From Desulfitobacterium metallireducens DSM 15288 (GTDB lineage Bacteria; Bacillota; Desulfitobacteriia; Desulfitobacteriales; Desulfitobacteriaceae), in assembly GCF_000231405.2 (NCBI RefSeq), contig NZ_CP007032.1, forward strand, positions 434,001 through 498,000: a stretch of DNA of 64,000 nt. Reading direction: 5' to 3'. A model generated the notes under the pieces. It had not been told where the DNA came from, did not search any database, and saw only the letters and a list, made by a program, of their open reading frames with translations. This document shows, piece by piece, positions 1-13,203 of the stretch. Position numbers and translations under genes: made by a program. The first letter of the stretch is position 1. Every line of letters starts with the position of its first letter.

Positions 1-12
1 AGTTGCCACTGC

Positions 13-87
13 ACATAACATGGCATTCACGAAACTTGCTAAGATGGATGTGGTTAGGACGCTTCATGAACCTGCGAAACGTTATAC
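13..87 (+). repeat. attC site 1
   Basis: R'' ACATAAC at 13-19 and R' GTTATAC at 81-87. The arms TTCACGAA and TTCATGAA flank the family's central segment (acttgctaagatggatgtgg). The R' opens the VOC cassette, whose closing R'' at 652 is its exact complement. Confidence 0.8.
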
Positions 88-104
88 GAAACCGTACGCA
101 AAGA

Positions 105-122
105 CTGCGCGTCCATGCGCGG
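105..122 (+). repeat. GTCCAT-loop hairpin, cassette 5' class
   Basis: GCGC-GTCCAT-GCGC stem-loop about 20 bp after the attC R' box, preceded by ACCGTACGCAAAG and followed by GGATTTTCT. The same arrangement recurs at 5626 and 8725, so it is a repeat family tied to cassette starts. Confidence 0.7.
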
Positions 123-176
123 ATTTTCTACAGAAAAGCATAGAGACTAGTTTGTAAATTAGAAGGGGGAATCTTG

Positions 177-569
177 ATGAAAGCAGAAATCAATCTAATT
201 ACAATTTGGACAAACAATATAGAGAAGATGAAGAATTTTTATAATCAAGTTCTTGGATTTAAGATTGAAAGTGACCTTGGAAGTTATGTTGAATTTGAAA
301 ATGATGGAGTCCGATTTGCTATTTGTATGAGAGAGGTTATGTATGATTATAGCAACGAATACGATAAAAAGGTAATTGGTCAGGCTTTTGAACTAGCGTT
401 TCCATGTGAAAATCCGAATGATGTTGATGAATCATTTACACAGTTAGTTACAAAGGGAGCAACTCCTATCCACGAACCACAGAATATGCCTTGGAATCAA
501 AGAACAGCATTATTTGCAGACCCAGACGGGAATATACATGAGATTTTTGCGAGATTAAGCAAATCATAA
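177..569 (+). CDS. VOC-superfamily (glyoxalase/bleomycin-resistance-like) protein
   Basis: A 130-residue protein of the length of a single vicinal-oxygen-chelate unit. It opens with a beta strand, then the typical helix IEKMKNFYNQVLGF (about 16-29). Near the C-terminus ADPDGNIHEIF (about 115-125) carries the usual terminal Glu metal ligand. The first-strand position that is often His is Asn here, so metal use is uncertain. The ATG at 177 is chosen because AGGGGGA lies 8 bp upstream; an adjacent TTG at 174 is possible. It is the only gene between attC sites 1 and 2. Substrate unknown; such proteins range from glyoxalases to antibiotic-binding or thiol-transfer resistance proteins. The family call is secure, the function is not. 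Confidence 0.8.
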   Translation: MKAEINLITIWTNNIEKMKNFYNQVLGFKIESDLGSYVEFENDGVRFAICMREVMYDYSNEYDKKVIGQAFELAFPCENPNDVDESFTQLVTKGATPIHEPQNMPWNQRTALFADPDGNIHEIFARLSKS

Positions 570-604
570 TATTCTAATTTAGGTAAAGTATACAGAGGGC
601 TCAA

Positions 605-628
605 GGGACCGCCGTCCATGGCGGCCTC
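605..628 (+). repeat. GTCCAT-loop hairpin, cassette 3' class
   Basis: CCGCC-GTCCAT-GGCGG stem-loop (609-624, longer with an internal mismatch) ending 28 bp before the R'' of attC 2. It is followed by CTGAATTTGGGGGCATACGG, a flank repeated before 4901 and 9042. Confidence 0.7.
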
Positions 629-651
629 TGAATTTGGGGGCATACGGCTTA

Positions 652-728
652 GTATAACAGCGAATTCCCAACACTTAGAGGATGATGAATGTGGTTGGGT
701 CGCGTCGGGAATTCATACAACGTTATGC
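652..728 (+). repeat. attC site 2
   Basis: R'' GTATAAC at 652-658 and R' GTTATGC at 722-728. The arms GAATTCCC (662-669) and GGGAATTC are perfectly complementary. The central CACTTAGAGGATGATGAATG element is the best example of the family consensus. Confidence 0.88.
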
Positions 729-749
729 GATATATCTGATTTTGAGAAG

Positions 750-1631
750 GTGATACTGCTGAATTCTTCTGAATTGAAGGATAGGATTAATAGCCTAAGC
801 ATATGGAAAAGAGGAGAAGAAAGAGCTCCTCATAAACCCCTACTTATCTTATTGGCTCTTGGACAGCTACAAAGTAGGAATAAACAATCTTTATACTATG
901 AAGAAGTTAGAGAATTGCTTAAAGAATTGCTAGTTGAATTTGGCCCTAGTAGAAAATCCTATCACCCTGAACAACCCTTTGTTAGATTAGCAAACGATGG
1001 AATATGGGAACTCAATACATCTGTTAAGAGAGATGATATTAAGGACAGCTGGTTAATGAAGCATCAAGTTGTCGGCGGCTTTAATGATGAGGTTTATTCT
1101 ATTCTAAATGGTAACGATGGTTTAATTCGAGAAATAGCAGAAATTGTTTTGAACAATCATTTCCCTGATACAATTCACGAGGATATTTTAACATCAGTAG
1201 GTCTTGATTTCGATAAGAAAGTGAGCAAGTTTAGAGATCCGAAGTTCCGAGAAAGAATCCTTAATGCTTATGAATATAGCTGTGCGGTATGTGGTTTTAA
1301 TGTTAGATTGGGAAATAACCTAATCGCTGTAGAAGCTGCTCATATTAAGTGGCATCAAGCAGGGGGGCCGGATTCGGAGGAAAATGGAATTGCATTATGT
1401 GCTATGCATCATAAACTTTTTGACAGGGGTGTCTTTACTATAACTCCATCAAGAATACTTTTAGTTGCGGAAAGGGCGCATGGAACAAGTGGTTTTAATG
1501 ATTGGTTAATGCAGTTTCACGGAAAAGAATTACGCACACCAATTCGTCCTGAATATTATCCTAGGGATACATTTGTTGAATGGCATGTTCATGAAGTCTT
1601 TCATGGACCCGCAAGATATTGCTCGGGTTGA
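750..1631 (+). CDS. Sulfur-binding-domain HNH endonuclease (phosphorothioate-dependent, type IV-like)
   Basis: From the GTG at 750 the protein has 293 residues. The N-terminal part matches the sulfur-binding-domain (SBD) family: IWKRGEERAPHKPLL (about 17-31), then KSYHPEQPFVRL (about 69-80). The C-terminal part is an HNH nuclease: CAVCG (about 178-182), AAHIKWH, then NGIALC and HHKLFD (about 219-224). Known members (ScoMcrA-like) bind phosphorothioated or 5-methylcytosine DNA and cut nearby. The open frame extends back to an ATG at 618, but that stretch is the hairpin and attC 2, so it is not taken as coding. The true start is uncertain: GTG 750, CTG 756 and TTG 774 are alternatives, with GAGAAGG at 744-750. 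All catalytic residues appear intact. It is striking beside the Dnd modification genes at 51-58 kb. Confidence 0.82.
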   Translation: MILLNSSELKDRINSLSIWKRGEERAPHKPLLILLALGQLQSRNKQSLYYEEVRELLKELLVEFGPSRKSYHPEQPFVRLANDGIWELNTSVKRDDIKDSWLMKHQVVGGFNDEVYSILNGNDGLIREIAEIVLNNHFPDTIHEDILTSVGLDFDKKVSKFRDPKFRERILNAYEYSCAVCGFNVRLGNNLIAVEAAHIKWHQAGGPDSEENGIALCAMHHKLFDRGVFTITPSRILLVAERAHGTSGFNDWLMQFHGKELRTPIRPEYYPRDTFVEWHVHEVFHGPARYCSG

Positions 1632-1637
1632 TACATC

Positions 1638-1712
1638 GCATAACAGCACCTTCCCGAAACTTAGTAAAAGATGGATGCAGAATGACGCTTTGGAAGCTGC
1701 AAAACGTTATAC
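1638..1712 (+). repeat. attC site 3
   Basis: R'' GCATAAC at 1638-1644, complementary to the R' GTTATGC that opens the same cassette at 722. R' GTTATAC at 1706-1712. Arms CTTCC and GGAAG. R'' begins only 6 bp after the stop codon of the HNH gene. Confidence 0.85.
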
Positions 1713-1767
1713 GATATGCTCGTCCTAATATTCATTTTATGCAATTTACTTAGTGGGAGAGGTTAAT

Positions 1768-2241
1768 TTGGAAAAGAATATTCAATTTAGAGAGGCTCGA
1801 CCTGAAGAAATCCAAGCTATCACTGATTTGGTTCTTGGAGTGTTTAATAAGTATGTTGGACATGGTTACTCTGAAGAAGGCCAATCCGCTTTTTGTCTGT
1901 ATTGCAATACAAATGCCATGTTAAAGAGACTAACGGAAGGAATTTCATTTTTCTTAGTAGCGATTTTTGAGCAAAAAATTATCGGAATGATTGAAGTTCG
2001 AAATCAGAATCACATTGCTTTATTGTTTGTAGATGATCGCTATCATAAAAAAGGTATAGCAAAGAAGTTAATCTCTTTGGCTATTGAAAGGGCACAGGTG
2101 ACAGAAATTGATGTAAACTCATCACCATATGCGGTAAATATTTATGCAAGGATAGGATTTCAGCAGGTAGATCATGAACAAGAAAGAGATGGTATTCGAT
2201 TTATTCCGATGAAAAAGATCGTAAACCAATCAAAGAATTAA
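1768..2241 (+). CDS. GNAT-family N-acetyltransferase
   Basis: About 157 residues with the GNAT fold order: IQFREARPEEIQAITDLV at the N-terminus, a central strand FFLVAIFEQKIIGMIEV, the acetyl-CoA loop DDRYHKKGIAKKLI (about 93-106; Q/RxxGxG/A type), and the C-terminal NIYARIGFQQV. This matches the small putative acetyltransferases common as integron cargo. The TTG at 1768 is chosen because GGGAGAGG lies about 6 bp upstream; a GTG at 1753 has no good site. It is the sole gene of its cassette (R' at 1706, R'' at 2268, exact complements). Substrate unknown. Confidence 0.82.
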   Translation: MEKNIQFREARPEEIQAITDLVLGVFNKYVGHGYSEEGQSAFCLYCNTNAMLKRLTEGISFFLVAIFEQKIIGMIEVRNQNHIALLFVDDRYHKKGIAKKLISLAIERAQVTEIDVNSSPYAVNIYARIGFQQVDHEQERDGIRFIPMKKIVNQSKN

Positions 2242-2267
2242 ATGCTTGGGTAGTAAAGCCGCACATC

Positions 2268-2343
2268 GTATAACAGCGTATGGCCGACACTTTGGAAAGA
2301 TGCATGTGGTTGGGGCGCGTCGGCTATACGCGGAACGTTAGCT
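2268..2343 (+). repeat. attC site 4
   Basis: R'' GTATAAC at 2268-2274, complementary to the R' at 1706. R' GTTAGCT at 2337-2343 is an unusual heptamer whose complement AGCTAAC closes the next cassette. Arms GCCGAC and GTCGGC differ in sequence from other sites yet still pair. Confidence 0.87.
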
Positions 2344-2361
2344 GAAATCTAGCTAACGGAG

Positions 2362-2667
2362 TTAAAGCAAGAAACTATATTGCCTTTTTCCATGAAGTAT
2401 TCCTCTGATTTCTACTACTTCCTCCAAAACTACATAGAAGACAAGGTAGTTATCTATTATTAAAACCCGATAATTTAGATGCATTAACCGTATATCCTTC
2501 GGGATAGCTCCTAAATAAGGGAAATAAGCAAGTTTAGAAATGGTTTTATCTACTACATCAAGGAAGTCCATAGCGGCTAAAGGGTCATCCACCTGAATAT
2601 ATTCTACGATACTCGTTAAATCATCTTGAGCTACAGGTAAATATTCTACGCGATATTTCTTATCCAT
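2362..2667 (-). CDS. RelE/ParE-family toxin
   Basis: A 101-residue basic protein with the RelE/ParE pattern: YRVEYLPVAQDDLTSIVEYI (helix 1), DKTISKLAYFPYLGAIP, then YRVLIIDNYLVFYVV and a final strand ending KRQYSFLL. ParE-type toxins poison gyrase and RelE-type toxins cleave mRNA; the sequence alone does not say which. It overlaps the antitoxin gene by 8 bp, so translation is probably coupled. The pair is encoded opposite to the attC direction and fills a whole cassette (R' 2337, R'' 3002). Two truncated copies of close relatives lie at 6051-6158 and 10250-10338. Confidence 0.87.
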   Translation of the reverse strand: MDKKYRVEYLPVAQDDLTSIVEYIQVDDPLAAMDFLDVVDKTISKLAYFPYLGAIPKDIRLMHLNYRVLIIDNYLVFYVVLEEVVEIRGILHGKRQYSFLL

Positions 2668-2926
2668 TGATCTTTTCCCTTAGATTTTTCATTAAATCTT
2701 TGTGAGAGATTCGCTCTGCACCTGAATTACTTTGAGCTTCAGCTTCTCCCAGCTTTTGATAGAGATCTAACAGTGCTTGTTGTCTTTCGTATAAGGCCAT
2801 GCTCATCACTACAAGATCACCTTGACCATTCTTAGTTATAAAGACTGGTTCACCATCTTTATGACAGATTTCAGATATTTGATTAAAGTTATTTCTAAGA
2901 TCGGAAATAGGTTTTATAGTAGGCAT
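2660..2926 (-). CDS. Phd/YefM-family antitoxin
   Basis: An 88-residue protein with the Phd/YefM N-terminal DNA-binding fold: ISDLRNNFNQISEI, then EPVFITKNGQGDLVVMSMALYE (about 27-48). The C-terminal tail is charged and would wrap the toxin. The ATG at 2926 is preferred over the one at 2932 because GGAG then sits 7 bp upstream. It neutralises the downstream toxin and probably autorepresses through the 2963-2978 palindrome. First gene of the pair. Confidence 0.87.
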   Translation of the reverse strand: MPTIKPISDLRNNFNQISEICHKDGEPVFITKNGQGDLVVMSMALYERQQALLDLYQKLGEAEAQSNSGAERISHKDLMKNLREKING

Positions 2927-2958
2927 TAGCATTCTCCTTTATCATTGTATTTGCTATT

Positions 2959-2978
2959 ATTATATCATAATTGTGATA
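2959..2978 (-). promoter_or_regulatory. Toxin-antitoxin promoter and operator
   Basis: On the minus strand a TATAAT (complement of 2959-2964) lies upstream of the antitoxin. The near-perfect 16-bp palindrome TATCATAATTGTGATA (2963-2978, one mismatched pair) overlaps it, as expected for antitoxin autoregulation. The cassette therefore carries its own promoter. Confidence 0.55.
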
Positions 2979-3001
2979 GATAGATGCAAGCGCCAGACAT
3001 C

Positions 3002-3075
3002 AGCTAACAAAATGTTCCCGTACTTTGCCAATATGCAAGCGGGTTAAGGCGCGTCGGGAATCCAAAACGTTATAT
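3002..3075 (+). repeat. attC site 5
   Basis: R'' AGCTAAC at 3002-3008 is the exact complement of the R' GTTAGCT at 2337. R' GTTATAT at 3069-3075. Arms TTCCCG and CGGGAA. Strong proof that the toxin-antitoxin unit is a cassette. Confidence 0.88.
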
Positions 3076-3094
3076 GACATTTCCGGCAAGACCG

Positions 3095-3112
3095 CCCGCC
3101 GTCCATGGCGGG
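3095..3112 (+). repeat. GTCCAT-loop hairpin, cassette 5' class
   Basis: CCCGCC-GTCCAT-GGCGGG stem-loop 20 bp after the R' of attC 5, preceded by CCGGCAAGAC. Confidence 0.7.
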
Positions 3113-3273
3113 GATATAGACGCGATTTGGCTGGAAATCATATTTCTTACTTGTAGGATTGCGAGACAAGGAATAGTTTGAAGTTTATATTGACATTTAA
3201 TTCGAGGATATTCTAACCATTTTTTATATCCTAACAGCACGACGGGAAATTCGAATTTAGAAAGGAGTCTCGG

Positions 3274-3675
3274 ATGAAGAAAAAAGTAATTATTGTGGTA
3301 GTAATAATCCTAGCCATATTGATATTGGGAAATGGCTTTGGGAAAAGGCCATTCAAAGACTTAACTAGAGATAATATAGTTAATGTCAGTTTATCGGTAA
3401 CTCCGCCTGGGAAAACAATCGAGATTCAGGATGAATTTAAAATTCAATCACTCGTAGACACCTTGAATTCTGTTGTTATCTATAAAGAGGATGATACGGG
3501 CCGAGAAGGCGATAGACAGTCAGTACAATTCACTCTATCAATAAATGATGGGAGTATAGTTAAAGTCGAGCCATCTGGGACGTTTATGTTTATAAATGAT
3601 AAATGTTATAAGACGAAAATTGAACCGTGTTTAGAATTATATACATTAGGAAATCGACTAATTAATTATAGTTAA
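3274..3675 (+). CDS. Hypothetical membrane-anchored protein
   Basis: A 133-residue protein, not recognised. Residues 4-22 form a hydrophobic segment (signal anchor or uncleaved signal peptide). The remaining part is an extracytoplasmic domain with alternating strands (VNVSLSVTPPGKTIEI, VQFTLSINDGSIVKV) and two Cys late in the sequence (KCYKTKIEPCLEL). There is no lipobox. AAAGGAG lies 7 bp before the ATG. Cassette-borne: R' at 3069 and R'' at 3789 are complementary. A 162-bp leader after the hairpin contains nothing recognisable. Confidence 0.7.
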   Translation: MKKKVIIVVVIILAILILGNGFGKRPFKDLTRDNIVNVSLSVTPPGKTIEIQDEFKIQSLVDTLNSVVIYKEDDTGREGDRQSVQFTLSINDGSIVKVEPSGTFMFINDKCYKTKIEPCLELYTLGNRLINYS

Positions 3676-3748
3676 GAAGAATAGCAGTAATTGACCGATA
3701 GATAATTCTTAAAGAGTAAAATGCGTTGAATAGAAATTGCTAGGGGCA

Positions 3749-3763
3749 TACCGCCCATGGACT
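3749..3763 (+). repeat. Degenerate 3'-class hairpin remnant
   Basis: The segment CCGCCCATGGACTCAGG occupies the same position, about 30-40 bp before R'', as the intact GTCCAT hairpins. Its flank TTCGTGGGGCAGGAAAC recurs at 15256-15273, where the hairpin is intact. Confidence 0.4.
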
Positions 3764-3788
3764 CAGGCTTCGTGGGGCAGGAAACATC

Positions 3789-3863
3789 ATATAACACAGA
3801 GTTCCCGTAACTTGTGAATGATGCATGTAGTTGGGACGCCTCGGGAACTCCTAAACGTTATCC
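3789..3863 (+). repeat. attC site 6
   Basis: R'' ATATAAC at 3789-3795, complementary to the R' GTTATAT at 3069. R' GTTATCC at 3857-3863. Arms GAGTTCCCG and CGGGAACTC pair over 9 bp. Confidence 0.88.
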
Positions 3864-3939
3864 GAAAGGGCATGCCGGAAAAGAATATTGAGGTTTTTGG
3901 GTTCGTTTGGCGAATTTTCGGGAGTTAGGGGGAGAATGA

Positions 3940-4383
3940 ATGTATTTGGTTAGCGCTTGTTTGGCGGGCATAAATTGTAGATACGACGGACAGAACACAA
4001 GGGTCAGTGGTGTTGAAGAATTAGTTCGGAGTGGAAAGGCTATTGCGGTATGCCCCGAATTACTTGGGGGTTTAGCAATACCGAGAGATAGTTGCGAGAT
4101 TGTTGAGGTTAGGGATGGAAATGTAAGAGTTGTGAGCAAAGAGGGCAAAGATCTCACTACATTTTTTGAAGACGGAGGACAAAAGACCTTAGAAATTACT
4201 AAGACGATCGGAATTACAGTAGCCATATTGAAATCAAAGAGTCCATCCTGTGGATATGGAAAAGTATATGACGGGACATTTACTAGAACCATAAGAGACG
4301 GGAATGGTTATACTGGAGGATTATTAGCGGCTAATGGTATAGTGGTTTACACTGAAGAAGAGTTTGACTCTCTATTTGAGTAA
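3940..4383 (+). CDS. DUF523 family protein
   Basis: A 147-residue protein matching the DUF523 family over its full length: SACLAGINCRYDG (5-17), AVCPELLGGL, a middle RVVSKEGKDLT segment and LKSKSPSCGYGKVYDG (about 96-111) with the conserved SPSCG. The conserved cysteines suggest metal or sulfur chemistry, but the biochemical role is not established. The ATG follows GGGGGAG by 5 bp. It starts the cassette after attC 6; its own closing attC is missing, so it now lies in a fused multi-gene unit reaching 5600. Confidence 0.88.
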   Translation: MYLVSACLAGINCRYDGQNTRVSGVEELVRSGKAIAVCPELLGGLAIPRDSCEIVEVRDGNVRVVSKEGKDLTTFFEDGGQKTLEITKTIGITVAILKSKSPSCGYGKVYDGTFTRTIRDGNGYTGGLLAANGIVVYTEEEFDSLFE

Positions 4384-4414
4384 GATCATGGGTCAATGAA
4401 ATTCATATCTTTAG

Positions 4415-4594
4415 GATGCATCTTGGGATGCCCCTTCACATTCATTTTGGGGATTTGCATTTGCTTTAATTGCAATGTTTAACTATTCATCAGTCGAAGC
4501 CTCATATCATTTACTGACACATTCATTGTTAATAGGATTAATATATACTGTAATACTTTGTACTTACATAATCCTTGATAGAATAGAGAAGTAG
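4415..4594 (+). pseudogene. Start-less remnant of a small membrane protein
   Basis: An open frame follows a stop at 4412-4414 and encodes a hydrophobic stretch (FAFALIAMF, then LLIGLIYTVILCTYIIL) ending at TAG 4592-4594. There is no start with a ribosome binding site; the only ATG (4475) is internal to the first hydrophobic run. It is read as the 3' part of a gene truncated when cassettes fused. Family not recognised. Confidence 0.35.
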
Positions 4595-4669
4595 CTTGCA
4601 CTTTCTTTATGATCCAAATGCATACGTAGGAAAATGTGTAACAAGAAATATTTAATAGGGGGTATTATT

Positions 4670-4810
4670 ATGATGGGTCTTGGTTATCTAAATATCGTTT
4701 TAGGTTCTATGAAAGCTATATTAGAAGTTATGTTGTATATGTCGGTTATTTTTGTATCATTTAAGGCAACGCAAGCATTGAATATTTATATTAATAAGAA
4801 CTCAAGATAA
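4670..4810 (+). CDS. Small membrane protein (46 aa), hypothetical
   Basis: A short ORF with one hydrophobic segment (about residues 16-31) and a polar, Lys/Asn-rich C-terminus. The Shine-Dalgarno-like ATAGGGGG sits 6 bp before the ATG, which supports translation. It lies 15 bp upstream of a 3'-class flank region and a broken attC at 4901, the position of a cassette gene. Function unknown. Confidence 0.5.
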   Translation: MMGLGYLNIVLGSMKAILEVMLYMSVIFVSFKATQALNIYINKNSR

Positions 4811-4855
4811 ATATTGCACATTTTATGACGATGAAGTCTCAGGTTATGTTTAAGG

Positions 4856-4875
4856 CAGCACCGTCCATGGCGCTG
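4856..4875 (+). repeat. GTCCAT-loop hairpin, cassette 3' class
   Basis: CAGCaCC-GTCCAT-GGcGCTG with one mismatch, preceded by GTTTAAGG and followed by TCTGAAACTGGGGGC. A near-identical copy with a perfect stem lies at 7251-7270. Confidence 0.7.
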
Positions 4876-4900
4876 TCTGAAACTGGGGGCACAATACGTT

Positions 4901-4950
4901 GTAGAACAGCAGGTTCTCGCTACTTAGAGGATGATGCGGGGACTTGCATT
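4901..4950 (+). repeat. Truncated attC (left half only)
   Basis: R''-like GTAGAAC at 4901-4907, L'' arm CAGGTTCTCG and the central CTTAGAGGATGATG element are present. The L' arm and the GTTRRRY box are gone, so the site cannot be a normal recombination substrate. It is replaced by sequence leading into the 5030 gene. Confidence 0.65.
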
Positions 4951-5029
4951 CGCATATCGGAGCAGGTTTTAGCTGCTTCATTATTTTTAGGGTATATCTT
5001 ATTAGCTTTGATTGTTTGGGGGATTTTTT

Positions 5030-5512
5030 ATGGTTACTAGGAAGCAGTTGTTTAGTCTTCTTATTTTAGGACGCACAGAGTGTTACGTTAAGAAAAATCC
5101 CACTTATAATCCATACGTTCCCGGTGACATTTACGATTGGCATTTTGAACTTGAGCAGGGAAAATATTTGTTTACTGATTCATACCGAGGTTTTAACCCA
5201 TATAGCGGAGTTGAGTACATTTACACGAAGGATCTGCGGGAACCAATCTGGGCCTGTGATTATGTCGGAAATGTTCGGATGAATTCTTTTGTTTCAGAAA
5301 AGGATATTTACGAGTTCTTGAAGAAAGCAAGGGGTATACACTTATTAAATTGTGGTGGAGATTTAGCAACGGAATATTTTTATAAAGATGGCGAATTTGT
5401 CTATCAATTAAGATTTAGTGGTAACCTTAATGCAATTTTGCAAACCGAGGAAATTTATTATCGAGGCACGTTAGTTGGCACACAAGTATCTGCTGGCTAT
5501 TTGAAAGTATAA
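5030..5512 (+). CDS. DUF5680-like protein
   Basis: A 160-residue soluble protein. The segments YLFTDSYRGFNPYSGVEYIY and EPIWACDYVG resemble DUF5680 domain proteins, a family of unknown role; this assignment is from pattern memory and is moderate. The ATG at 5030 is chosen because GGGGGA lies 6 bp upstream; the upstream TTG at 5012 lacks a site. It closes with attC 7 at 5528, but that R'' (ATATAAC) does not match the R' that opens this region (GTTATCC at 3857), showing that the unit is a fusion of at least two cassettes. Confidence 0.6.
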   Translation: MVTRKQLFSLLILGRTECYVKKNPTYNPYVPGDIYDWHFELEQGKYLFTDSYRGFNPYSGVEYIYTKDLREPIWACDYVGNVRMNSFVSEKDIYEFLKKARGIHLLNCGGDLATEYFYKDGEFVYQLRFSGNLNAILQTEEIYYRGTLVGTQVSAGYLKV

Positions 5513-5527
5513 GAACGTGTGAACGAC

Positions 5528-5606
5528 ATATAACAGAGGGTTCACGACATCGGGTAAGCGCTTCTCATGGGAAAGCCCGACGTCGTGAACCCTCAAAACG
5601 TTATGC
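5528..5606 (+). repeat. attC site 7 (exceptionally long arms)
   Basis: R'' ATATAAC at 5528-5534 and R' GTTATGC at 5600-5606. The arms GAGGGTTCACGAC and GTCGTGAACCCTC are perfectly complementary over 13 bp, and an inner TCGGG/CCCGA pair extends the stem. The central element is diverged from other sites. Confidence 0.85.
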
Positions 5607-5625
5607 GAAACCGTACGCAAAGGCA

Positions 5626-5643
5626 CCGCGCCTTCATGCGCGG
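5626..5643 (+). repeat. GTCCAT-type hairpin, cassette 5' class
   Basis: CCGCGC-CTTCAT-GCGCGG stem-loop (loop variant CTTCAT) 20 bp after the R' of attC 7, preceded by ACCGTACGCAAAGG as at position 91. Confidence 0.68.
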
Positions 5644-5723
5644 ATTGGGGATTAGTTGTGGCCTATTGCGCACTTGTAGCATATTACGTAGTATGAATTC
5701 TTATAATTCAGGAGGATTGGGTT

Positions 5724-6047
5724 GTGGATGAAAAGCAATATAATAAATTAGTTAGAGATAATATTCCGGATATTATTAGAAATGATGGAAATATCCCCGT
5801 TACCCGAGTCTTGGGTAACGATGAATATATTGCTTGTTTGCATGAAAAATTACAGGAAGAGGTTGCTGAGTACCTAAAAGATAACAGCCTCGAAGAACTA
5901 TGTGATGTGTGGGAAGTGCTTGAAGCAATCTCTTCAGTTATGGAGTTTTCAAAGGATGAAATAGAACGGACAAAGCTAGAAAAAGCAGAAAAGAATGGAG
6001 TTTTTAAAGACAGAATATTTTTGGAAAAAGTAATTGTGAGTAATTGA
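5724..6047 (+). CDS. MazG-like / phosphoribosyl-ATP pyrophosphohydrolase-type NTP pyrophosphatase
   Basis: A 107-residue all-helical protein of the MazG-like superfamily. YNKLVRDNIPDII (6-18) is the characteristic N-terminus of the house-cleaning subfamily. KLQEEVAEYL (about 44-53) and EELCDVWEVLEAI (about 58-70) supply the ExxE and ExxD acidic metal ligands. It likely hydrolyses non-canonical nucleoside triphosphates. The GTG start follows AGGAGG by about 8 bp. Its cassette has lost its closing attC; a ParE remnant follows directly. Confidence 0.82.
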   Translation: MDEKQYNKLVRDNIPDIIRNDGNIPVTRVLGNDEYIACLHEKLQEEVAEYLKDNSLEELCDVWEVLEAISSVMEFSKDEIERTKLEKAEKNGVFKDRIFLEKVIVSN

Positions 6048-6050
6048 GTT

Positions 6051-6158
6051 TTGCAAAATGGTTTTATCTGCTACATCAAGGAAGTTCATAGCAGCTATAG
6101 GATCATCCACCTGAATATATCCTACGATATTCGTTAAATCATCTTGAGCTACAGGAAA
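6051..6158 (-). pseudogene. ParE/RelE toxin gene fragment
   Basis: The minus strand encodes PVAQDDLTNIVGYIQVDD and continues through DFLDV-like residues to DKTI, matching residues about 11-46 of the toxin at 2362-2667. Both ends are missing. It abuts the right half of an attC (R' at 6168), so a recombination or deletion joined a former toxin-antitoxin cassette to another site. Confidence 0.8.
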
Positions 6159-6159
6159 A

Positions 6160-6174
6160 TGCGAAACGTTATGC
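6160..6174 (+). repeat. Truncated attC (right end only)
   Basis: Only TGCGAAAC-GTTATGC remains: the spacer and R' box at 6168-6174. It still defines the 5' end of the next cassette, whose R'' at 6764 is the exact complement (GCATAAC). Confidence 0.65.
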
Positions 6175-6209
6175 GCCATTTGGGTCATTAAAAGGGGGAG
6201 GGAAGAAGA

Positions 6210-6731
6210 TTGAATGGACATGAAATTGGAAGTCTTGCATGTAAAGTTCTCGGAATATTCTTTATTGTGCAAGGGATCAATACATTAGCCAGTATAATAT
6301 CGTTTATAGCTTCAACGCCAAGTCTGAATGGTAATGAAAGGTTATTAAACATTTGTTTCGCTCTAATTTACATTGTATTTGGAGTTTTGTTATGGTTTCT
6401 TTCGGATAAGATTTCAGAAATGATGAACACAGGTAAACGAAATGCTGATAATAAATCAGTTATAGAGATAGGAGATATTCAAAGAGTATCTTTTTCAGTT
6501 CTCGGACTCTACTTTATGGGAAGTTCATTACCAAAGTTAGTATCAAATTTAATAAATATGCATTATCTAATAAATGACCCTAATTCTACAACGAGATTAA
6601 TACTTGGTCTAGGTGGGATGCTTACTCAATTTATTATAGGATTAGGGATTTTTCTCGGCTCACAAGGCTTAGTTAATTTCCTTAAAGTGATGAGAAGTGC
6701 GGGTATCAGAAAAGAAAATGATTCGGAGTAA
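6210..6731 (+). CDS. Hypothetical multi-pass membrane protein
   Basis: A 173-residue protein with four predicted hydrophobic segments (about 12-33, 47-65, 91-110 and 131-155) and a short polar loop, KISEMMNTGKRNADNKS. No family recognised. The TTG start at 6210 follows GGGGGAGGGAAG. It is the only gene of its cassette (R' 6168, R'' 6764). Nothing in the sequence suggests an enzyme. Confidence 0.7.
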   Translation: MNGHEIGSLACKVLGIFFIVQGINTLASIISFIASTPSLNGNERLLNICFALIYIVFGVLLWFLSDKISEMMNTGKRNADNKSVIEIGDIQRVSFSVLGLYFMGSSLPKLVSNLINMHYLINDPNSTTRLILGLGGMLTQFIIGLGIFLGSQGLVNFLKVMRSAGIRKENDSE

Positions 6732-6763
6732 AAGAGATAATAGGGTATTCCTCTGCCAACGGC

Positions 6764-6805
6764 GCATAACACAGGAGTCCCGTAACTGGAGTCCCGTAAC
6801 TGGAG
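6764..6805 (+). repeat. Truncated attC with internal tandem duplication
   Basis: R'' GCATAAC at 6764-6770 is complementary to the R' at 6168. The L'' arm region GGAGTCCCGTAACT is duplicated head-to-tail (6775-6788 and 6789-6802). The L' arm and R' box are lost. Confidence 0.65.
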
Positions 6806-6847
6806 GATACGCATTTGTAAGATAATGTGCGGTAAGGGAGGGATAAA

Positions 6848-7228
6848 ATGCCTGATTATTTCTATCTAACGATTCTATGTGTTGGAGTTATTATTCAAAT
6901 CATTCTACTAATTTACTTGTTTGTTAAGGGAAAATATTATCCATACTTCGGCCGGGATGAGGAAGATAGTCTTAAAAAAAGAATCTTTGATATAGGATTG
7001 AATTTAGTAATCGTGGTTTCTGCTACAATACTATCTTTTTCCCGTGAGAATACGGAACTTCTAGTTTTAATTTTTTTCATTCTATTAATAGCAATCGTTC
7101 TTTGTGTAAACATATTAAATTATTTATCGTATAGAAAAATGAAAGACCCCAAGATTATTTGGCAAACGGTTACTCTAGATTTATCTATTATTGCTCTTTT
7201 TTTAATTATCAAATACATACTTCCATAA
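6848..7228 (+). CDS. Hypothetical membrane protein
   Basis: A 126-residue protein with four hydrophobic segments (about 5-27, 46-64, 71-92 and 108-125) and a charged cytoplasmic-like loop, GRDEEDSLKKR. Family not recognised. The ATG follows GGGAGGG by 5 bp. The preceding attC is truncated at 6764 and the following one is a right half at 7275, so its original cassette boundaries are partly lost. Confidence 0.68.
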   Translation: MPDYFYLTILCVGVIIQIILLIYLFVKGKYYPYFGRDEEDSLKKRIFDIGLNLVIVVSATILSFSRENTELLVLIFFILLIAIVLCVNILNYLSYRKMKDPKIIWQTVTLDLSIIALFLIIKYILP

Positions 7229-7250
7229 ACAGTACAAGAAATGTTTAAGG

Positions 7251-7270
7251 CAGCGCCGTCCATGGCGCTG
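7251..7270 (+). repeat. GTCCAT-loop hairpin, cassette 3' class
   Basis: CAGCGCC-GTCCAT-GGCGCTG, a perfect 7-bp stem, preceded by GTTTAAGG exactly as at 4848-4855. It lies directly before a half attC. Confidence 0.72.
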
Positions 7271-7272
7271 TC

Positions 7273-7294
7273 TGGAACCTGCAAAACGTTAATG
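7273..7294 (+). repeat. Truncated attC (right half)
   Basis: L' arm GGAACCTGC plus AAAAC and R' GTTAATG at 7288-7294. R'', L'' and the central element are absent; the GTCCAT hairpin is fused straight to the L' arm. Confidence 0.6.
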
Positions 7295-7383
7295 CCATAG
7301 TCGTCCGTGTCAGGGCTTTCTTTGAATACATATAGCAACACGTCGAAGAAGTGAGAAAAGCGAAAATTTATTGGAGTGTATTA

Positions 7384-7460
7384 TGAGCAATAAATATCCT
7401 GATGAGATCAAAGCTATAAAGGTTCTTGAACAGGCAGAAGAATTAAATCCTGGATTGAGG
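7384..7460 (+). pseudogene. N-terminal fragment, possibly HD-domain protein
   Basis: The ATG at 7384 opens a frame reading MSNKYPDEIKAIKVLEQAEELNPG, like the start of HD-domain phosphohydrolase-type proteins. It then runs into a hairpin repeat at 7461 and loses any domain character. The family assignment is weak; truncation by cassette-end sequence is clear. Confidence 0.45.
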
Positions 7461-7480
7461 AGCCACTGTCTGTGGTGGCT
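7461..7480 (+). repeat. Variant cassette-end hairpin
   Basis: AGCCAC-TGTCTGTG-GTGGCT stem-loop followed by TCTGAGTCAGGGGGG, a diverged copy of the 3'-class hairpin and flank. No attC follows, so the rest of the site is deleted. Confidence 0.5.
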
Positions 7481-7545
7481 TCTGAGTCAGGGGGGTTACG
7501 ATAGTTGGGTTAGGGCAAAAGTAAATAGGAAGGGGAGAATGAATT

Positions 7546-7986
7546 ATGAGCAAGGTACAAGAGGCAGTTGTTTGCTTTAACGAGAGTTTCAGTTGTTCCC
7601 AAGCAGTGTTTTCGACATACGCCACTCAATTTGGTTTGGATAAGGAAACAGCATTTCGAGTATCCGCCAGTTTTGGCGGTGGCATGGCCAGGATGGGTGA
7701 TACCTGTGGCGCAGTAACCGGAGCGTTCATGGTAATTGGATTGAAATATGGAAAAACGAGAGCTGAGGATGAAGATTCAAAAGAGCGGACGTTTCAGGTT
7801 GTTCAGGAGTTTGTAAGTAGATTCAGAGAATGTAACGGATCAATTATATGTAGAGATTTACTCGGTTGTGACATAAGCACAAAAGATGGCGCGAAAAAGG
7901 CAAAAGAACACAATTTGTTCAATACTATTTGCCCGAACTTAGTTAAAAATTCGGCACAGCTACTTGAGGAAATTCTTAACCTTTAA
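7546..7986 (+). CDS. C_GCAxxG_C_C family redox protein
   Basis: A 146-residue protein with the family's cysteine pattern: SCSQAVF (about 16-22), the glycine-rich SFGGGMARMGDTCGAVTGA (about 43-61), a later CRDLLGCD (about 104-111) and the C-terminal NTICPNLV. The family is often redox-linked in anaerobes but its reaction is unproven. The ATG is preceded by AGGGGAG. It lies between broken attC sites, with the next full site at 8633, and the lipoprotein gene follows after 39 bp without an attC between. Confidence 0.85.
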   Translation: MSKVQEAVVCFNESFSCSQAVFSTYATQFGLDKETAFRVSASFGGGMARMGDTCGAVTGAFMVIGLKYGKTRAEDEDSKERTFQVVQEFVSRFRECNGSIICRDLLGCDISTKDGAKKAKEHNLFNTICPNLVKNSAQLLEEILNL

Positions 7987-8025
7987 CACATTTTTTATTT
8001 CGTTGTCGGTTAGGGAGGAATTTGA

Positions 8026-8586
8026 GTGAAGAGAGTTTTAGTTGTGGTTTTAGCATTCGCACTACTATTAACCGGATGTGCGACGAACTTAAGGTTGACA
8101 AAGGGACCGGGTACAGTTCCGTCAATTAGTTCAAGTGAAAAGTCCCTATTCGATATGGATGGATCTCAGTCTGAAACTATCGCAGAGAACGGATTTATTT
8201 TCAAATACGGCATAGAAGGCAAAAACGTATTAAATACTTTTGAGGGTACTTTTACTAAGGATTTGATTAGTAAGGGAACAATCACCGTTCCTCTTAAATT
8301 GACAGATCAGGAACTATCAACAGTTTACTTTCAGCTAAAGGCAATGAATATTATGGATTATCCAGATACTTTCGATGAAGGCTATTCCATTCCTTACTTA
8401 ACTTATGATTTAACAGTTAGAATGGATGGTAAAACCAAGAAAATCAAATGGGATGAAGGATTTGGAGGTCTCTCTAAATCCAAAGAAGCAGAGCGATTAA
8501 AAGAATTAGTTAACAGTACGAGTAAAATGGTGGAAAACAAAGAGGAGTACAAAAGGCTACCTCCAGCAGTCGGTGGTTATGACTAA
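8026..8586 (+). CDS. Predicted lipoprotein
   Basis: A 186-residue protein with a type II signal peptide: MKRVLVVVLAFALLLTGC, with lipobox LLTGC and Cys at residue 18. The mature part has beta-rich segments (TYDLTVRMDGKTKKIKWDEG) and no recognised family. The GTG start follows AGGGAGGAA. It would be anchored on the outer face of the membrane. It is downstream of the C_GCAxxG gene and is closed by the attC at 8633. Confidence 0.72.
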   Translation: MKRVLVVVLAFALLLTGCATNLRLTKGPGTVPSISSSEKSLFDMDGSQSETIAENGFIFKYGIEGKNVLNTFEGTFTKDLISKGTITVPLKLTDQELSTVYFQLKAMNIMDYPDTFDEGYSIPYLTYDLTVRMDGKTKKIKWDEGFGGLSKSKEAERLKELVNSTSKMVENKEEYKRLPPAVGGYD

Positions 8587-8632
8587 AAGGTTAAATATGA
8601 AATAATGCATGATTGGTCTCTGCCGCATAACG

Positions 8633-8708
8633 TAATAACTGCAGGTTTCCGTCACTTGGAGGATGATGCATGAGGTTAGGGCGCGCGGGAACCTGCGAGA
8701 CGTTATAC
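8633..8708 (+). repeat. attC site 8
   Basis: R''-like TAATAAC at 8633-8639 (a GCATAAC at 8625-8631 is an alternative) and R' GTTATAC at 8702-8708. Arms GCAGGTT and AACCTGC. The central CACTTGGAGGATGATGCATG element is conserved. Confidence 0.8.
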
Positions 8709-8724
8709 AAAATCGCACGCATAG

Positions 8725-8742
8725 CCGCGCGTCCATGCGCGG
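8725..8742 (+). repeat. GTCCAT-loop hairpin, cassette 5' class
   Basis: CCGCGC-GTCCAT-GCGCGG followed by ATTTTCT, 16 bp after the R' of attC 8; close copy of the element at 105-122. Confidence 0.72.
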
Positions 8743-8773
8743 ATTTTCTGGGAGAAAACATCATGATAAAAAA

Positions 8774-8977
8774 ATGAACTTGAAAATAGCAGGAATTATA
8801 AGTGTCATGGTAGCGCTTATTACAATTGCAATCCACACTCTTGTTATTTTAAAGATAATGCCCTTTTCATGGATAAACGGTGGAAGGTCTGAGACCTTTG
8901 AAATTGCAAAACAGACTTCAACGATAAGTATTATCATATTGATATTCAGCATCATTATTTCAATATATGTAATTTAA
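8774..8977 (+). CDS. Small membrane protein (67 aa), hypothetical
   Basis: Two hydrophobic segments (about 5-27 and 49-66) separated by a short loop, INGGRSETFEIAKQ. The open frame reaches further upstream, but that part is the attC and hairpin, so the ATG at 8774 is taken. The ribosome binding site is poor: GGGAG is 20 bp away, which leaves the start uncertain. The following R''-like CTATAAC at 9042 nearly complements the R' at 8702. Confidence 0.5.
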   Translation: MNLKIAGIISVMVALITIAIHTLVILKIMPFSWINGGRSETFEIAKQTSTISIIILIFSIIISIYVI

Positions 8978-8993
8978 GCTATTACGAAGGCTC

Positions 8994-9048
8994 AAGTGGC
9001 TGCCCGTCCGTGGTGGTCTGAATTTGGGGGCGTATGGCTTCCTATAAC
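8994..9048 (+). repeat. 3'-class hairpin remnant plus attC R'' box
   Basis: The flank CTCAAGTGGCTGCCCGTCCGTGG, then CTGAATTTGGGGGCGTATGG and R''-like CTATAAC at 9042-9048, matches the segment 601-658. Sequence after R'' is replaced by a gene fragment, so the attC is truncated. Confidence 0.6.
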
Positions 9049-9243
9049 AAGGAAATCAGAAAAGCAACGCTTTACGATGTAAAAGATATCTGTCGGATTC
9101 ATGCTTTAGGTGGAAGTCGGCCTATAAGGGAATTATTCCACAAGCATATGAATACATTTGTGAAAATACAAGGAAAACAACATGCTGAGATACGGGATAT
9201 TTATCCTTTTGACAACTTCAGTTGTAGAGATTACAAATATTGA
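9049..9243 (+). pseudogene. Truncated GNAT-family acetyltransferase
   Basis: The frame encodes KEIRKATLYDVKDICRIHAL, a typical GNAT N-terminus, then unrelated or deleted sequence ending after 65 codons. No acetyl-CoA-binding motif follows. There is no start codon of its own beyond the attC remnant. Read as a cassette gene broken by an internal deletion. Confidence 0.6.
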
Positions 9244-9261
9244 GAACGGAAGGAAATGAAA

Positions 9262-10083
9262 ATGAAAAAGATTGATAAAATGTGGAAATATGTTATTTAT
9301 ACATATCTTTTGTTTTGGTTTATGGTTTTAGGCATTGGCGGAATAGCGATTTTTATGCTGAATGCTTCAGATTTCTCAATGAGATGGGTTATCACTTTAT
9401 GCAGTTGGTCGCCTACAATCGTGCTTTTACTAATGCTGAAAAAGCTCAACCCTGATACGAGTATTTGGGAATTTTATAAAAAGGCTTTCAAAGAGAAATT
9501 GAATTTCAGAGTATTCGCACTTGTCATGTTGGTAATTGTGGGCATATTTTTGCTATCGGTATGGACTTTGTCAGTATTTGAAAAACAAGAAATTTCGGCA
9601 CAGCTTTCTTTTGTATCGGCTACATTATTTGGCAATATCCTGTTTACTGCCATTCAAGGTGCAAGCGGCGAAGAATCTGGATGGAGGGCATATCTGATGC
9701 CGGAAATGGAAAGCAGATACGGATTTGTCAGGGGCAACCTAATCTTAGGCCTGGTTTGGTCATTCTGGCATCTTCCTTTGTGGTTTGTTTCCACGAATTA
9801 CAACGGACTTTTATTACTGATTTATATTTTTTCATTTATCATTGGTTTAACCTCATTTTCAATGATCATCGGAGTGTGTATGAAAAAATGCAACAACTTG
9901 TTTTTAGCTTTTTGGATGCACTTTTTATTTAATTTTGTATTAACATTTTTTACAGGACAGGACATATATTTGCTATCTTCATTAGCCATATTATACGTCC
10001 TTGTTGCCACGATCTTTGTGGCTGTTTATTTGAAAAAATCAAATTTATACCGATTAGAAGATAAAAACATTTCGAATATATGA
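9262..10083 (+). CDS. CPBP-family intramembrane metalloprotease
   Basis: About 273 residues with seven or eight hydrophobic segments. The CPBP (Abi) signature is present: GEESGWRAYL (about 136-145, motif 1 EExxxR) and FWHLPLW (about 167-173, motif 2 with the metal-binding His). A third motif region, CNNLFLAFWMHFLFN, carries a further His/Asn. These proteases act within the membrane; roles include CAAX-type processing, bacteriocin immunity and phage exclusion. The ATG at 9262 is preferred over 9256 for spacing from GGAAGGA. It lies among broken cassettes and has no intact attC on either side. Confidence 0.85.
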   Translation: MKKIDKMWKYVIYTYLLFWFMVLGIGGIAIFMLNASDFSMRWVITLCSWSPTIVLLLMLKKLNPDTSIWEFYKKAFKEKLNFRVFALVMLVIVGIFLLSVWTLSVFEKQEISAQLSFVSATLFGNILFTAIQGASGEESGWRAYLMPEMESRYGFVRGNLILGLVWSFWHLPLWFVSTNYNGLLLLIYIFSFIIGLTSFSMIIGVCMKKCNNLFLAFWMHFLFNFVLTFFTGQDIYLLSSLAILYVLVATIFVAVYLKKSNLYRLEDKNISNI

Positions 10084-10249
10084 GCATAGCAAACGGCCGA
10101 TCTTCTAGGGATTTACTATCTACGCTGGAGTTGTAGTGGAAATAGAATTCTTAATATGTGAAACGAGATCATTCGAAGGGCATAAGGAGTGTGGCAGCTG
10201 TACATGTTCGGCTCTGGGGAGCGTACCGCATCATAGTAAGATAAGTCTA

Positions 10250-10338
10250 TGGTCCTTAGGAACACTTTCCATATACGGGAAATAGGATAATTTCGATATG
10301 GTCTTATCAATTTCATCCAATAAACTTAGGGCTAATGT
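10250..10338 (-). pseudogene. ParE/RelE toxin gene fragment
   Basis: The minus strand encodes LDEIDKTISKLSYFPYMESVPKDH, corresponding to the middle of the toxin at 2362-2667 (VVDKTISKLAYFPYLGAIPKD). Start and end are missing. Like the fragment at 6051, it sits just left of a half attC. The rest of the 355-bp gap 10084-10438 holds only a degenerate cassette-end flank near 10215-10235 and the 10362 attC half. Confidence 0.75.
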
Positions 10339-10361
10339 AACGTTAGGACCTTAATCATAGA

Positions 10362-10382
10362 TGAACCTGCGGGACGTTATCT
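10362..10382 (+). repeat. Truncated attC (right half)
   Basis: The L' arm and spacer GAACCTGCGGGAC lead to R' GTTATCT at 10376-10382. The left half is replaced by the toxin fragment. Confidence 0.6.
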
Positions 10383-10438
10383 GAAACCACTAGGTCAAAG
10401 ATATGAAGTCGTAGAGTAAGAGCCAGAAGGAGAAAAAT

Positions 10439-11203
10439 ATGAATGATATAAACATAATAGAATTAAATAGTGAAAACCTATCGCGATACGGTTGCTTTTG
10501 CCTTAAGAGCAAGCCTGGTTCAGAAGGCTATAGAAACAAAAATATCTGGATGAAAGAAAGATTAGCTGAAGGCCTTAAGTATTTAATCCTGTCTAAGGAT
10601 AATGAGACCTCCTGTGGATTTATCGAATACATACCTTCTGAGTACGCTTGGAGAGGAATACAGGCAGAGAACTATCTGGTTATTCATTGTTTATGGACAA
10701 CTGCTTCTGGACAAGGTTATGGGTCGCGGTTAATTCAAAAATCTATTGAAGATGCAAAAGCGCAGAATAAATATGGAGTGGCCGTTGTTACCAACTCCAA
10801 AGATACATGGATTGCAAACAAAGACATATTTATTAAAAACGGTTTTAAATTAGTGAGCGAAACATTAGGCTCCTTTGAATTACTTGTATATAAGTTTGGA
10901 GAGTACCTAGATCCATACTTCCCGGACGACTGGGAAGCAAGAGCTAGGAGGCTGGGAGAGGGTTTAACTATCCTACGTTCCTATCAGTGCCCTTATGTCG
11001 AGGTTGCAACTAATAACATATTGGAGGGAGCCGAAGGAGCCGGTATCAAGCCTGTAATAATAGATTTAAAGGATAGGAATGAAATGATAAATCTAGCTCC
11101 TTCGCCTTATGGAGTGTTCAATGTAGTATATAAAGGAAAACTAGTTGCCTTTCATAGAATAACAGTCCGTGCAGCTAAAAAACTGTTTCAGGATCAATGT
11201 TAA
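10439..11203 (+). CDS. GNAT acetyltransferase with YoaP-like C-terminal domain
   Basis: A 254-residue two-part protein. Residues about 1-150 form a GNAT domain with the acetyl-CoA loop ASGQGYGSRLI (about 89-99) and a central CGFIEYIPSEYAW. Residues about 165-250 match the thioredoxin-like YoaP-type extension (LRSYQCPYVEVATNNI, then GIKPVIIDL). Such fusions are widespread in clostridia; the substrate is unknown. The ATG follows AGAAGGAG. The stop codon lies 6 bp before the surviving part of an attC, so the extreme C-terminus may be altered. Confidence 0.8.
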   Translation: MNDINIIELNSENLSRYGCFCLKSKPGSEGYRNKNIWMKERLAEGLKYLILSKDNETSCGFIEYIPSEYAWRGIQAENYLVIHCLWTTASGQGYGSRLIQKSIEDAKAQNKYGVAVVTNSKDTWIANKDIFIKNGFKLVSETLGSFELLVYKFGEYLDPYFPDDWEARARRLGEGLTILRSYQCPYVEVATNNILEGAEGAGIKPVIIDLKDRNEMINLAPSPYGVFNVVYKGKLVAFHRITVRAAKKLFQDQC

Positions 11204-11208
11204 TCCTT

Positions 11209-11260
11209 AGGAGCAGTTGCAAGCGGTTGGGACGTGTCGCAAACCTGCGAGACGTTATCT
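11209..11260 (+). repeat. Truncated attC (R''/L'' missing)
   Basis: The central element fragment TTAGGAG and GCAAGCGGTTGGGACG are followed by the L' arm TCGCAAACCTGC and R' GTTATCT at 11254-11260. The next cassette's R'' (AGATAAC at 11855) is its exact complement. Confidence 0.68.
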
Positions 11261-11306
11261 GTAATGCAGATGATGACAATGAGATTGATTAGGAAGGATA
11301 TTTTAC

Positions 11307-11804: not shown

Positions 11805-11854
11805 AATATGGTTCGGATGGACTTGTCGAGGTGTGGCTCTGGGCTCCGCACTAC

Positions 11855-11875
11855 AGATAACATTACATTCGCGCA
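11855..11875 (+). repeat. Truncated attC (left end)
   Basis: R'' AGATAAC at 11855-11861 exactly complements the R' at 11254. Only CATTACATTCGCGC of the arm follows before the next gene's leader. The preceding CTCTGGGCTCCGCACTAC resembles other cassette 3' flanks. Confidence 0.62.
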
Positions 11876-11922
11876 AGGGCGCCAGAAGAAAAAATTTTCG
11901 GGGATTTGAAGGAGGTGTGATT

Positions 11923-12735: not shown

Positions 12736-12760
12736 CATTTGGGGAGGCGCAGGTTGTCTT

Positions 12761-13051: not shown

Positions 13052-13064
13052 TTTTAGAACCATA

Positions 13065-13139
13065 ATACAACAAAAGATTTTTGACACTTTGCCAATATGT
13101 AAGCGATTTGAGGCGCGTCGGGAATCTGGAGCGTTATCT
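13065..13139 (+). repeat. attC site 9 (degenerate R'' and L'')
   Basis: R''-like ATACAAC at 13065-13071 and R' GTTATCT at 13133-13139. The L' arm GTCGGGAATC faces an L'' of GATTTTTGAC: three C-to-T changes, consistent with decay of an inactive arm. Central element CACTTTGCCAATATG as in attC 5. Confidence 0.7.
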
Positions 13140-13203
13140 GCAATCCTAGAGTATATAAGTAGCATTATGTATAAATGAGATGGACTTATGAGAAGGTGAA
13201 ATA

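What the first reader, a model, noticed from the sequence alone, without database searches (positions are those of the whole stretch)
750..1631. Phosphorothioate-targeting nuclease in the same segment as a phosphorothioation system
Seen: an SBD-HNH protein with all HNH residues intact is a cassette gene, and a complete dndBCDEA operon lies 50 kb away. Known: ScoMcrA-type SBD nucleases cleave phosphorothioated DNA and are normally incompatible with dnd. Coexistence implies that the nuclease is silent, recognises a different sequence context from the local DndCDE mark, is kept off by cassette position, or that the Dnd system is off.
Basis: partly seen in the sequence, partly recalled or inferred. 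Interest (0 to 1): 0.75.

Follow-up and report, generated by a model that had tools for sequence, protein, structure and literature searches.

The report
Muted sulfur-DNA nuclease beside Dnd
This bacterium carries both the genes that put sulfur into its own DNA and an intact-looking gene for an enzyme that should cut such DNA; the enzyme gene sits deep in a dead gene-cassette array and has lost its normal start codon, so it is probably hardly made, which would explain why the two can coexist.

Summary
Window 759-1631 (+) encodes a full-length SBD-HNH protein of the PT-DNA_restrict family (369.8 bits, cut-off 180). Every sulfur-pocket and HNH residue is in place, and the AlphaFold model matches the SprMcrA and ScoMcrA sulfur-binding domains. 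Coexistence itself is not new: the literature reports rare cases and offers the same explanations, and I found DndC in 3 of 88 SBD-HNH genomes against 14 of 695 sampled genomes (no depletion, low power). What is new here is a specific reason for tolerance. At the position where 49 of 54 relatives (50% identity or more) start with ATG and four with GTG or TTG, this copy has CTG behind an intact ribosome-binding site. The gene is also a cassette with a short leader, about 23 kb and 22 attC sites into an array whose integrase is only a short relic. Best reading: a competent enzyme that is hardly expressed. Different site specificity is the main rival. About 5% of relatives carry other disabling lesions without known Dnd, so the link to Dnd is not proven. 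Moderate interest.

The parts
652..730 (+). attC site that ends the previous (glyoxalase) cassette; its R' box GTTATGC 722-728 marks the start of the SBD-HNH cassette
   Evidence: nhmmer with a model built from sites of this array, E 8.9e-19 (site was among the seeds); one of 32 same-strand sites at E<1e-3
723..1706 (+). SBD-HNH gene cassette (G/TT to G/TT), 984 bp, with only 24 nt before the Shine-Dalgarno
   Evidence: positions of the two R' boxes; sequence
747..754 (+). Shine-Dalgarno AAGGTGAT, same place as in closest homologs
   Evidence: duplex with anti-SD -11.9 kcal/mol versus -5.2, -2.7 and -0.9 for ATG618, GTG750 and TTG774
759..761 (+). CTG at the position of the family's conserved start codon (ATG in 49 of 54 homologs at 50% identity or more)
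759..1631 (+). SBD-HNH phosphorothioate-dependent restriction endonuclease: SBD about 762-1220, HNH about 1240-1500
   Evidence: NF045808 369.8 bits, HNH_2, model and Foldseek, conservation
1636..1714 (+). attC site of the SBD-HNH cassette
   Evidence: nhmmer E 2.4e-15 (site was among the seeds)
1..16404 (+). right-hand part of the attC cassette array (whole array genome 411577-450404); integrase relic at genome 411316-411465, outside the window
40053..41828 (+). dndF
   Evidence: PADLOC PDLC02673, 622.8 bits
41830..43236 (+). dndG
   Evidence: PADLOC PDLC02677, 457.6 bits
43196..48370 (+). dndH
   Evidence: PADLOC PDLC02684, 2233 bits over full length
48492..48989 (+). small HARE-HTH protein between dndH and the DUF262 gene
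   Evidence: Pfam PF05066, 28.6 bits
49576..51549 (+). DUF262/GmrSD_N protein with DGQQR motif, DndI/SspE-like N-terminus, no DUF1524 match
   Evidence: Pfam PF03235, 91.6 bits; PADLOC HEC-06/Orf5/SspE N-terminal matches
51653..52792 (-). dndA, cysteine desulfurase
   Evidence: TIGR03235, 475.8 bits, just under its cut-off of 480
52794..53186 (-). dndE
   Evidence: Pfam PF08870, 146.3 bits; PDB 7x4e DndE, E 2.2e-9
53183..55126 (-). dndD
   Evidence: TIGR03185, 470.2 bits, full length
55131..56630 (-). dndC
   Evidence: TIGR03183, 622.6 bits, full length
56627..57694 (-). dndB
   Evidence: TIGR03233, 384 bits

Best explanation
The gene encodes a chemically competent SprMcrA/EcoWI-type nuclease that would bind the sulfur of phosphorothioated DNA through its SBD and cut nearby with its HNH domain. 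It coexists with a working Dnd/DndFGH system mainly because it is hardly made. It is a cassette without room for its own promoter, about 23 kb into an array whose integrase is destroyed, and its start codon has become CTG behind an otherwise good ribosome-binding site. Shown by sequence: intact protein, CTG at the conserved start position, attC context, integrase relic, complete dnd operon. Inferred: low transcription, roughly 100-fold lower initiation (by analogy with E. coli), an active Dnd system, and that the muting is what makes coexistence tolerable.
For: Homologs at 50% identity or more (n=54) have ATG 49, GTG 2, TTG 2, ATA 1 at this position, and none has CTG. The Shine-Dalgarno is in place at -11.9 kcal/mol and no other in-frame start has comparable pairing. 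In E. coli a CUG start gives 0.86% of AUG output (PMC11497404). Only 24 nt lie between the cassette boundary and the Shine-Dalgarno; promoter-like sites in the region are at chance level. 32 same-strand attC sites at E<1e-3, the gene behind about 22 of them. The only integrase trace at the array head is a 50-residue relic. Protein intact with a correct SBD fold. An expressed ScoMcrA cannot coexist with dnd, and introducing dnd selects for loss of restriction (PMC3009677).
Against: No transcript or protein data. A strong Shine-Dalgarno may partly rescue CTG. ATG618, in frame and open through the attC, could give an N-terminally extended protein. Promoters in upstream cassettes cannot be excluded. 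Three intact SBD-HNH genes coexist with DndC elsewhere, so muting is not required in general. Four of 78 relatives carry nonsense or frameshift lesions without a proven PT writer, so a lesion in this gene needs no Dnd to explain it. A sequencing error at one base cannot be excluded.
Confidence: 0.52

Rival explanations
1. Different specificity: the nuclease is expressed but its SBD does not recognise the sequence context that the local DndCDE modifies, so host DNA is not a substrate while foreign PT-DNA of another context is restricted.
For: Known SBDs differ in context: ScoMcrA only GpsGCC; SprMcrA GGCC, GATC, GAAC; EcoWI GpsAAC/GpsTTC (PMC7470945, PMC7461809). The lid residue here is Q71 where ScoMcrA has Y164. 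The coexisting genes of L047, L061 and L072 look intact, so something other than muting must serve there.
Against: The loop after helix 3 is basic here (R64, K65), a feature linked to relaxed specificity (PMC7470945), which makes overlap with a host motif more likely. It does not account for the lost start codon. The Dnd motif is unknown.
Confidence: 0.25
2. The Dnd system is silent or only weakly modifying, so there is no substrate.
For: The dnd island has low GC (33-39% against 43-45% for the backbone) and looks acquired. Dnd systems modify only a fraction of sites and DndB is a repressor (PMC7461809).
Against: All of dndABCDE and dndFGH are open and full-length. A DndFGH or DndI-like module without modification is expected to harm the cell (PMC11662687 for DndI).
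Confidence: 0.1
3. The nuclease is made and tolerated under control, as a PT-linked guard or second effector, through regulated expression, an inhibitor, or an N-terminal extension started at ATG618.
For: SBD-type HNH proteins occur in many dnd loci (PMC10853773). In the Pirellula locus L072, tandem HNH_2 and SBD-HNH genes sit beside dndB. The frame is open from ATG618 through the attC.
Against: Here the gene is 50 kb from dnd in an unrelated cassette array, with no conserved linkage. The ATG618 extension is attC sequence, absent from homologs, with a weak Shine-Dalgarno.
Confidence: 0.08

Closest known systems
SprMcrA (Streptomyces pristinaespiralis SBD-HNH)
   Same: SBD-HNH architecture; best fold matches are its SBD-PT-DNA complexes 7ccd, 7ccj, 7cc9 (TM normalised to target 0.72-0.77); pocket proline kept
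   Different: only 18-20% identity; pocket HK and QP here versus YQ and YP; canonical HNH here versus H-N-R reported for SprMcrA (PMC7461809)
EcoWI and related PT-dependent REases (Bsp305I, Mae9806I and others; PMC7461809)
   Same: SBD-HNH without SRA; HK pocket variant described for these enzymes
   Different: sequence context and cleavage distance unknown here; encoded in an attC array with a CTG at the start position
ScoMcrA (SBD-SRA-HNH)
   Same: SBD fold (5zmo, TM normalised to target 0.77) and HNH domain; the genetic precedent for incompatibility with dnd
   Different: no SRA domain here; about 290 residues
DndABCDE-DndFGH with DndI (Salmonella Cerro 87)
   Same: dndBCDE(A) plus dndFGH plus a DUF262 gene next to them
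   Different: dndA is inside the operon here; the DUF262 protein lacks a DUF1524 match and has F where DndI has Y25 (by motif, not by alignment); an extra HARE-HTH gene

Membership tests
SBD-HNH phosphorothioate-dependent restriction endonuclease | full-length match to the family profile | tested here: met
   NF045808 369.8 bits, cut-off 180
SBD-HNH phosphorothioate-dependent restriction endonuclease | SBD fold with sulfur pocket (H, R/K, P) | tested here: met
   H24, K25, P72 present and invariant in 77 sequences; Foldseek top hits are SBDs
SBD-HNH phosphorothioate-dependent restriction endonuclease | intact HNH catalytic and zinc residues | tested here: met
   H194, N208, H217, C174, C177, C213, H216
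SBD-HNH phosphorothioate-dependent restriction endonuclease | cleaves phosphorothioated DNA | not testable with these tools
   needs biochemistry
Dnd phosphorothioation system | complete dndCDE writer with dndA or IscS, and dndB | tested here: met
Dnd phosphorothioation system | DndFGH restriction module | tested here: met
Dnd phosphorothioation system | phosphorothioates in the strain's DNA | not testable with these tools
   needs LC-MS/MS or PT mapping
Complete integron | same-strand array of attC sites | tested here: met
   32 sites on one strand at E<1e-3
Complete integron | functional intI integrase | tested here: not met
   no match over the IntI cut-off in the genome; 50-residue relic at the array head
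DndI (DUF262-DUF1524) | DUF262 N-terminus with DGQQR | tested here: met
   PF03235 and sequence
DndI (DUF262-DUF1524) | C-terminal DUF1524 HNH | tested here: not met
   no Pfam match at E<=0.001

The most novel reading that the evidence does not exclude
A natural record of the Dnd versus PT-nuclease conflict: a lineage that held a PT-dependent nuclease in an integron acquired a Dnd island and survived by start-codon attenuation instead of gene loss, leaving an intact enzyme whose low output is matched to the density of host marks.
Probability: 0.2. Interest if true: 0.6.

Novelty: new member of a known kind. Interest (0 to 1): 0.42.

Why it matters
The incompatibility of PT-writing and PT-cutting systems rests mainly on Streptomyces experiments, while genomes show occasional coexistence without an explanation. 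Here one coexistence comes with a concrete, cheap-to-test reason at the level of a single codon and of cassette position. It also offers an apparently intact nuclease of unknown PT context from a Dnd+ strain, useful for testing whether specificity or expression decides compatibility.

Tried and rejected
SBD pocket non-functional: rejected (model). HNH family PF01844 in the genome: no match, because the domain belongs to HNH_2. Second SBD-HNH gene in the genome: none. Strict attC consensus (RYYYAAC/GTTRRRY): failed, sites here are RYATAAC-type, found with a profile instead. Statistical depletion of dnd in SBD-HNH genomes: 3 of 88 versus 14 of 695, p 0.43, no depletion and low power. DndC-like genes in genomes of L037 and L018 as PT writers: not accepted, below cut-off and no DndD or DndE beside them. 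Link between broken SBD-HNH genes and writers: p 0.04 only with the index case included and counting those DndC-like genes, 0.23 without the index case, so not claimed. SspD as an alternative writer in 50 genomes: only weak matches. Viral relatives: none. Predicting the Dnd motif from sequence: not attempted for lack of a reliable rule. dN/dS against close homologs: dS mostly saturated, dN 0.14-0.24, shows only long-term constraint.

Full report
What is there. The window is bases 434001-498000 of a 3.18-Mb single-contig genome. In PDB its sequence matches weakly the SBD of SprMcrA and the HNH of TagI. An AlphaFold model from 48 window and locus proteins (mean pLDDT 85.4, pTM 0.55) has as its top Foldseek matches the SprMcrA and ScoMcrA sulfur-binding domains bound to phosphorothioated DNA (TM normalised to target 0.72-0.77).

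Integrity of the protein. Numbering from N762 as residue 1, the sulfur pocket is H24, K25, Q71, P72, R75, against ScoMcrA H116, R117, Y164, P165, A168. K for R, loss of Y, and R for A168 are all documented as tolerated or common (PMC6224610). HNH residues H194, N208, H217 and zinc ligands C174, C177, C213, H216 are present; assignment of the zinc ligands is by analogy. Over 76 homologs the protein does not deviate at any column conserved in 88% or more.

The start codon. In homologs of 50% identity or more the start is at one fixed position: ATG 49, GTG 2, TTG 2, ATA 1 of 54; the ATA belongs to a copy that also has a nonsense codon. In the window that codon, 759-761, is CTG. The Shine-Dalgarno AAGGTGAT at 747-754 matches the place and form seen in the nearest homologs L001 and L004 and pairs at -11.9 kcal/mol; GTG750, TTG774 and ATG618 have -2.7, -0.9 and -5.2. 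In E. coli CUG yields 0.86% of AUG output (PMC11497404). That the same factor holds in this organism is inference. Among more distant homologs the start position varies, and a CTG at this position in L070 is not a start.

The cassette and the array. attC sites flank the gene at 652-730 and 1636-1714, and the cassette is 723-1706. A profile built from nine sites finds 32 sites on the same strand at E<1e-3, from genome 411577 to 450404 (window -22423 to 16404); the gene is behind 22 of them. No integrase over the IntI cut-off exists in the genome. At the array head only a 50-residue frame matches IntI, joining what look like two separate parts of the protein, so the integrase is a relic. Only 24 nt lie between the cassette boundary and the Shine-Dalgarno, and promoter-like sites in 1-1800 occur at chance number (6 against 5.6 expected). 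The cassette is thus unlikely to be re-ordered, and it probably depends on read-through.

The Dnd locus. dndB, C, D, E, A are open, full-length and contiguous on the minus strand; DndA scores 475.8 against a cut-off of 480. Reading the translations: DndC has the SGGKDST loop and a cluster of cysteines, DndD the GRGKTT loop and the SAGEKQ signature, DndB DGQHR, DndA the NGSACTS cysteine loop. dndF, G, H, a HARE-HTH gene and a DUF262 gene complete an island of 33-39% GC between backbone of 42-46% GC, downstream of glmM- and glmS-like genes and an IS21 pair.

How unusual is coexistence? Experiment: ScoMcrA and dnd cannot coexist in Streptomyces, and 40 of 41 dnd strains lacked a homologue (PMC3009677). 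Surveys: less than 3.6% of SBD-HNH enzymes are near dnd, with the same explanations proposed (PMC7461809), and wHTH(SBD)-SRA-HNH proteins occur in dnd loci of 698 taxa (PMC10853773). Here, DndC over its cut-off occurs in 3 of 80 genomes carrying the nearest homologs (L047, L061, L072); L047 is an 8.2-Mb metagenome bin and may be mixed. In 299 genomes of the own phylum DndC occurs in 3, SBD-HNH in 5, both only in this genome. In 397 genomes of the phylum of L079's host the counts are 12, 4 and 0. Pooled without the index case: 3 of 88 versus 14 of 695, p 0.43; the two sets overlap slightly and differ in taxonomy, so this shows only that depletion is not visible. Among 61 relatives the SBD-HNH gene is unique to this genome and DndC occurs in four, so both look like mobile gains.

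Mechanism. The best reading is a competent enzyme that is barely made (0.52). Each muting feature is seen in sequence; their effect on expression is inferred. A point against a causal link to Dnd is that 3 of 78 relatives carry a lone in-frame nonsense codon and one a frameshift, without a proven PT writer: this gene is switched off now and then in any case. The main rival is different specificity (0.25), which must be at work in the other coexisting genomes if their enzymes are active.

Novelty. The enzyme is a new member of a known family, and coexistence was known. Two searches of the held library brought up no paper whose title or abstract describes an SBD-HNH gene in an integron, but the library is incomplete. 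The specific muting features are new for this genome and testable.

Noticed in passing
window 49576-51549: DUF262/GmrSD_N protein of 657 aa between dndH and dndA, about the size given for Salmonella dndI (1,971 bp), with DGQQR but PDFQ instead of the DndI Y25 context and no DUF1524 match: possibly a PT-sensing effector with a different C-terminal domain.
   Followed up: partly
window 48492-48989: Small stand-alone HARE-HTH protein (165 aa) between dndH and the DUF262 gene; HARE-HTH is known in dnd loci fused to a nuclease.
   Followed up: no
L022, L025, L037 (SBD-HNH gene near 9992-10870); L050:8216-8989: Three homologs carry a single in-frame nonsense codon and one a late frameshift in an otherwise intact SBD-HNH gene: recent, separate inactivations in Bacillaceae.
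   Followed up: partly
L072:3729-10789: Pirellula MAG: dndEDC and dndB directly beside two tandem HNH genes, the second an intact SBD-HNH (377.8 bits), the first a divergent paralogue; a physically coupled Dnd/PT-nuclease locus.
   Followed up: partly
L029:17379-20846: DndH-like gene (33% identity, cut by the locus end) within 7 kb of an SBD-HNH gene in a genome with no DndC match.
   Followed up: no
window 34772-39437: The dnd island lies just downstream of a GlmS-like gene (34772-36619, behind a GlmM-like gene) and an IS21 istAB pair, the neighbourhood used by Tn7-like elements.
   Followed up: no
genome 411316-450404 (window -22684 to 16404): Integron-like array of at least 32 attC sites with RYATAAC/GTTATRY-type boxes and only a relic of the integrase.
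   Followed up: partly
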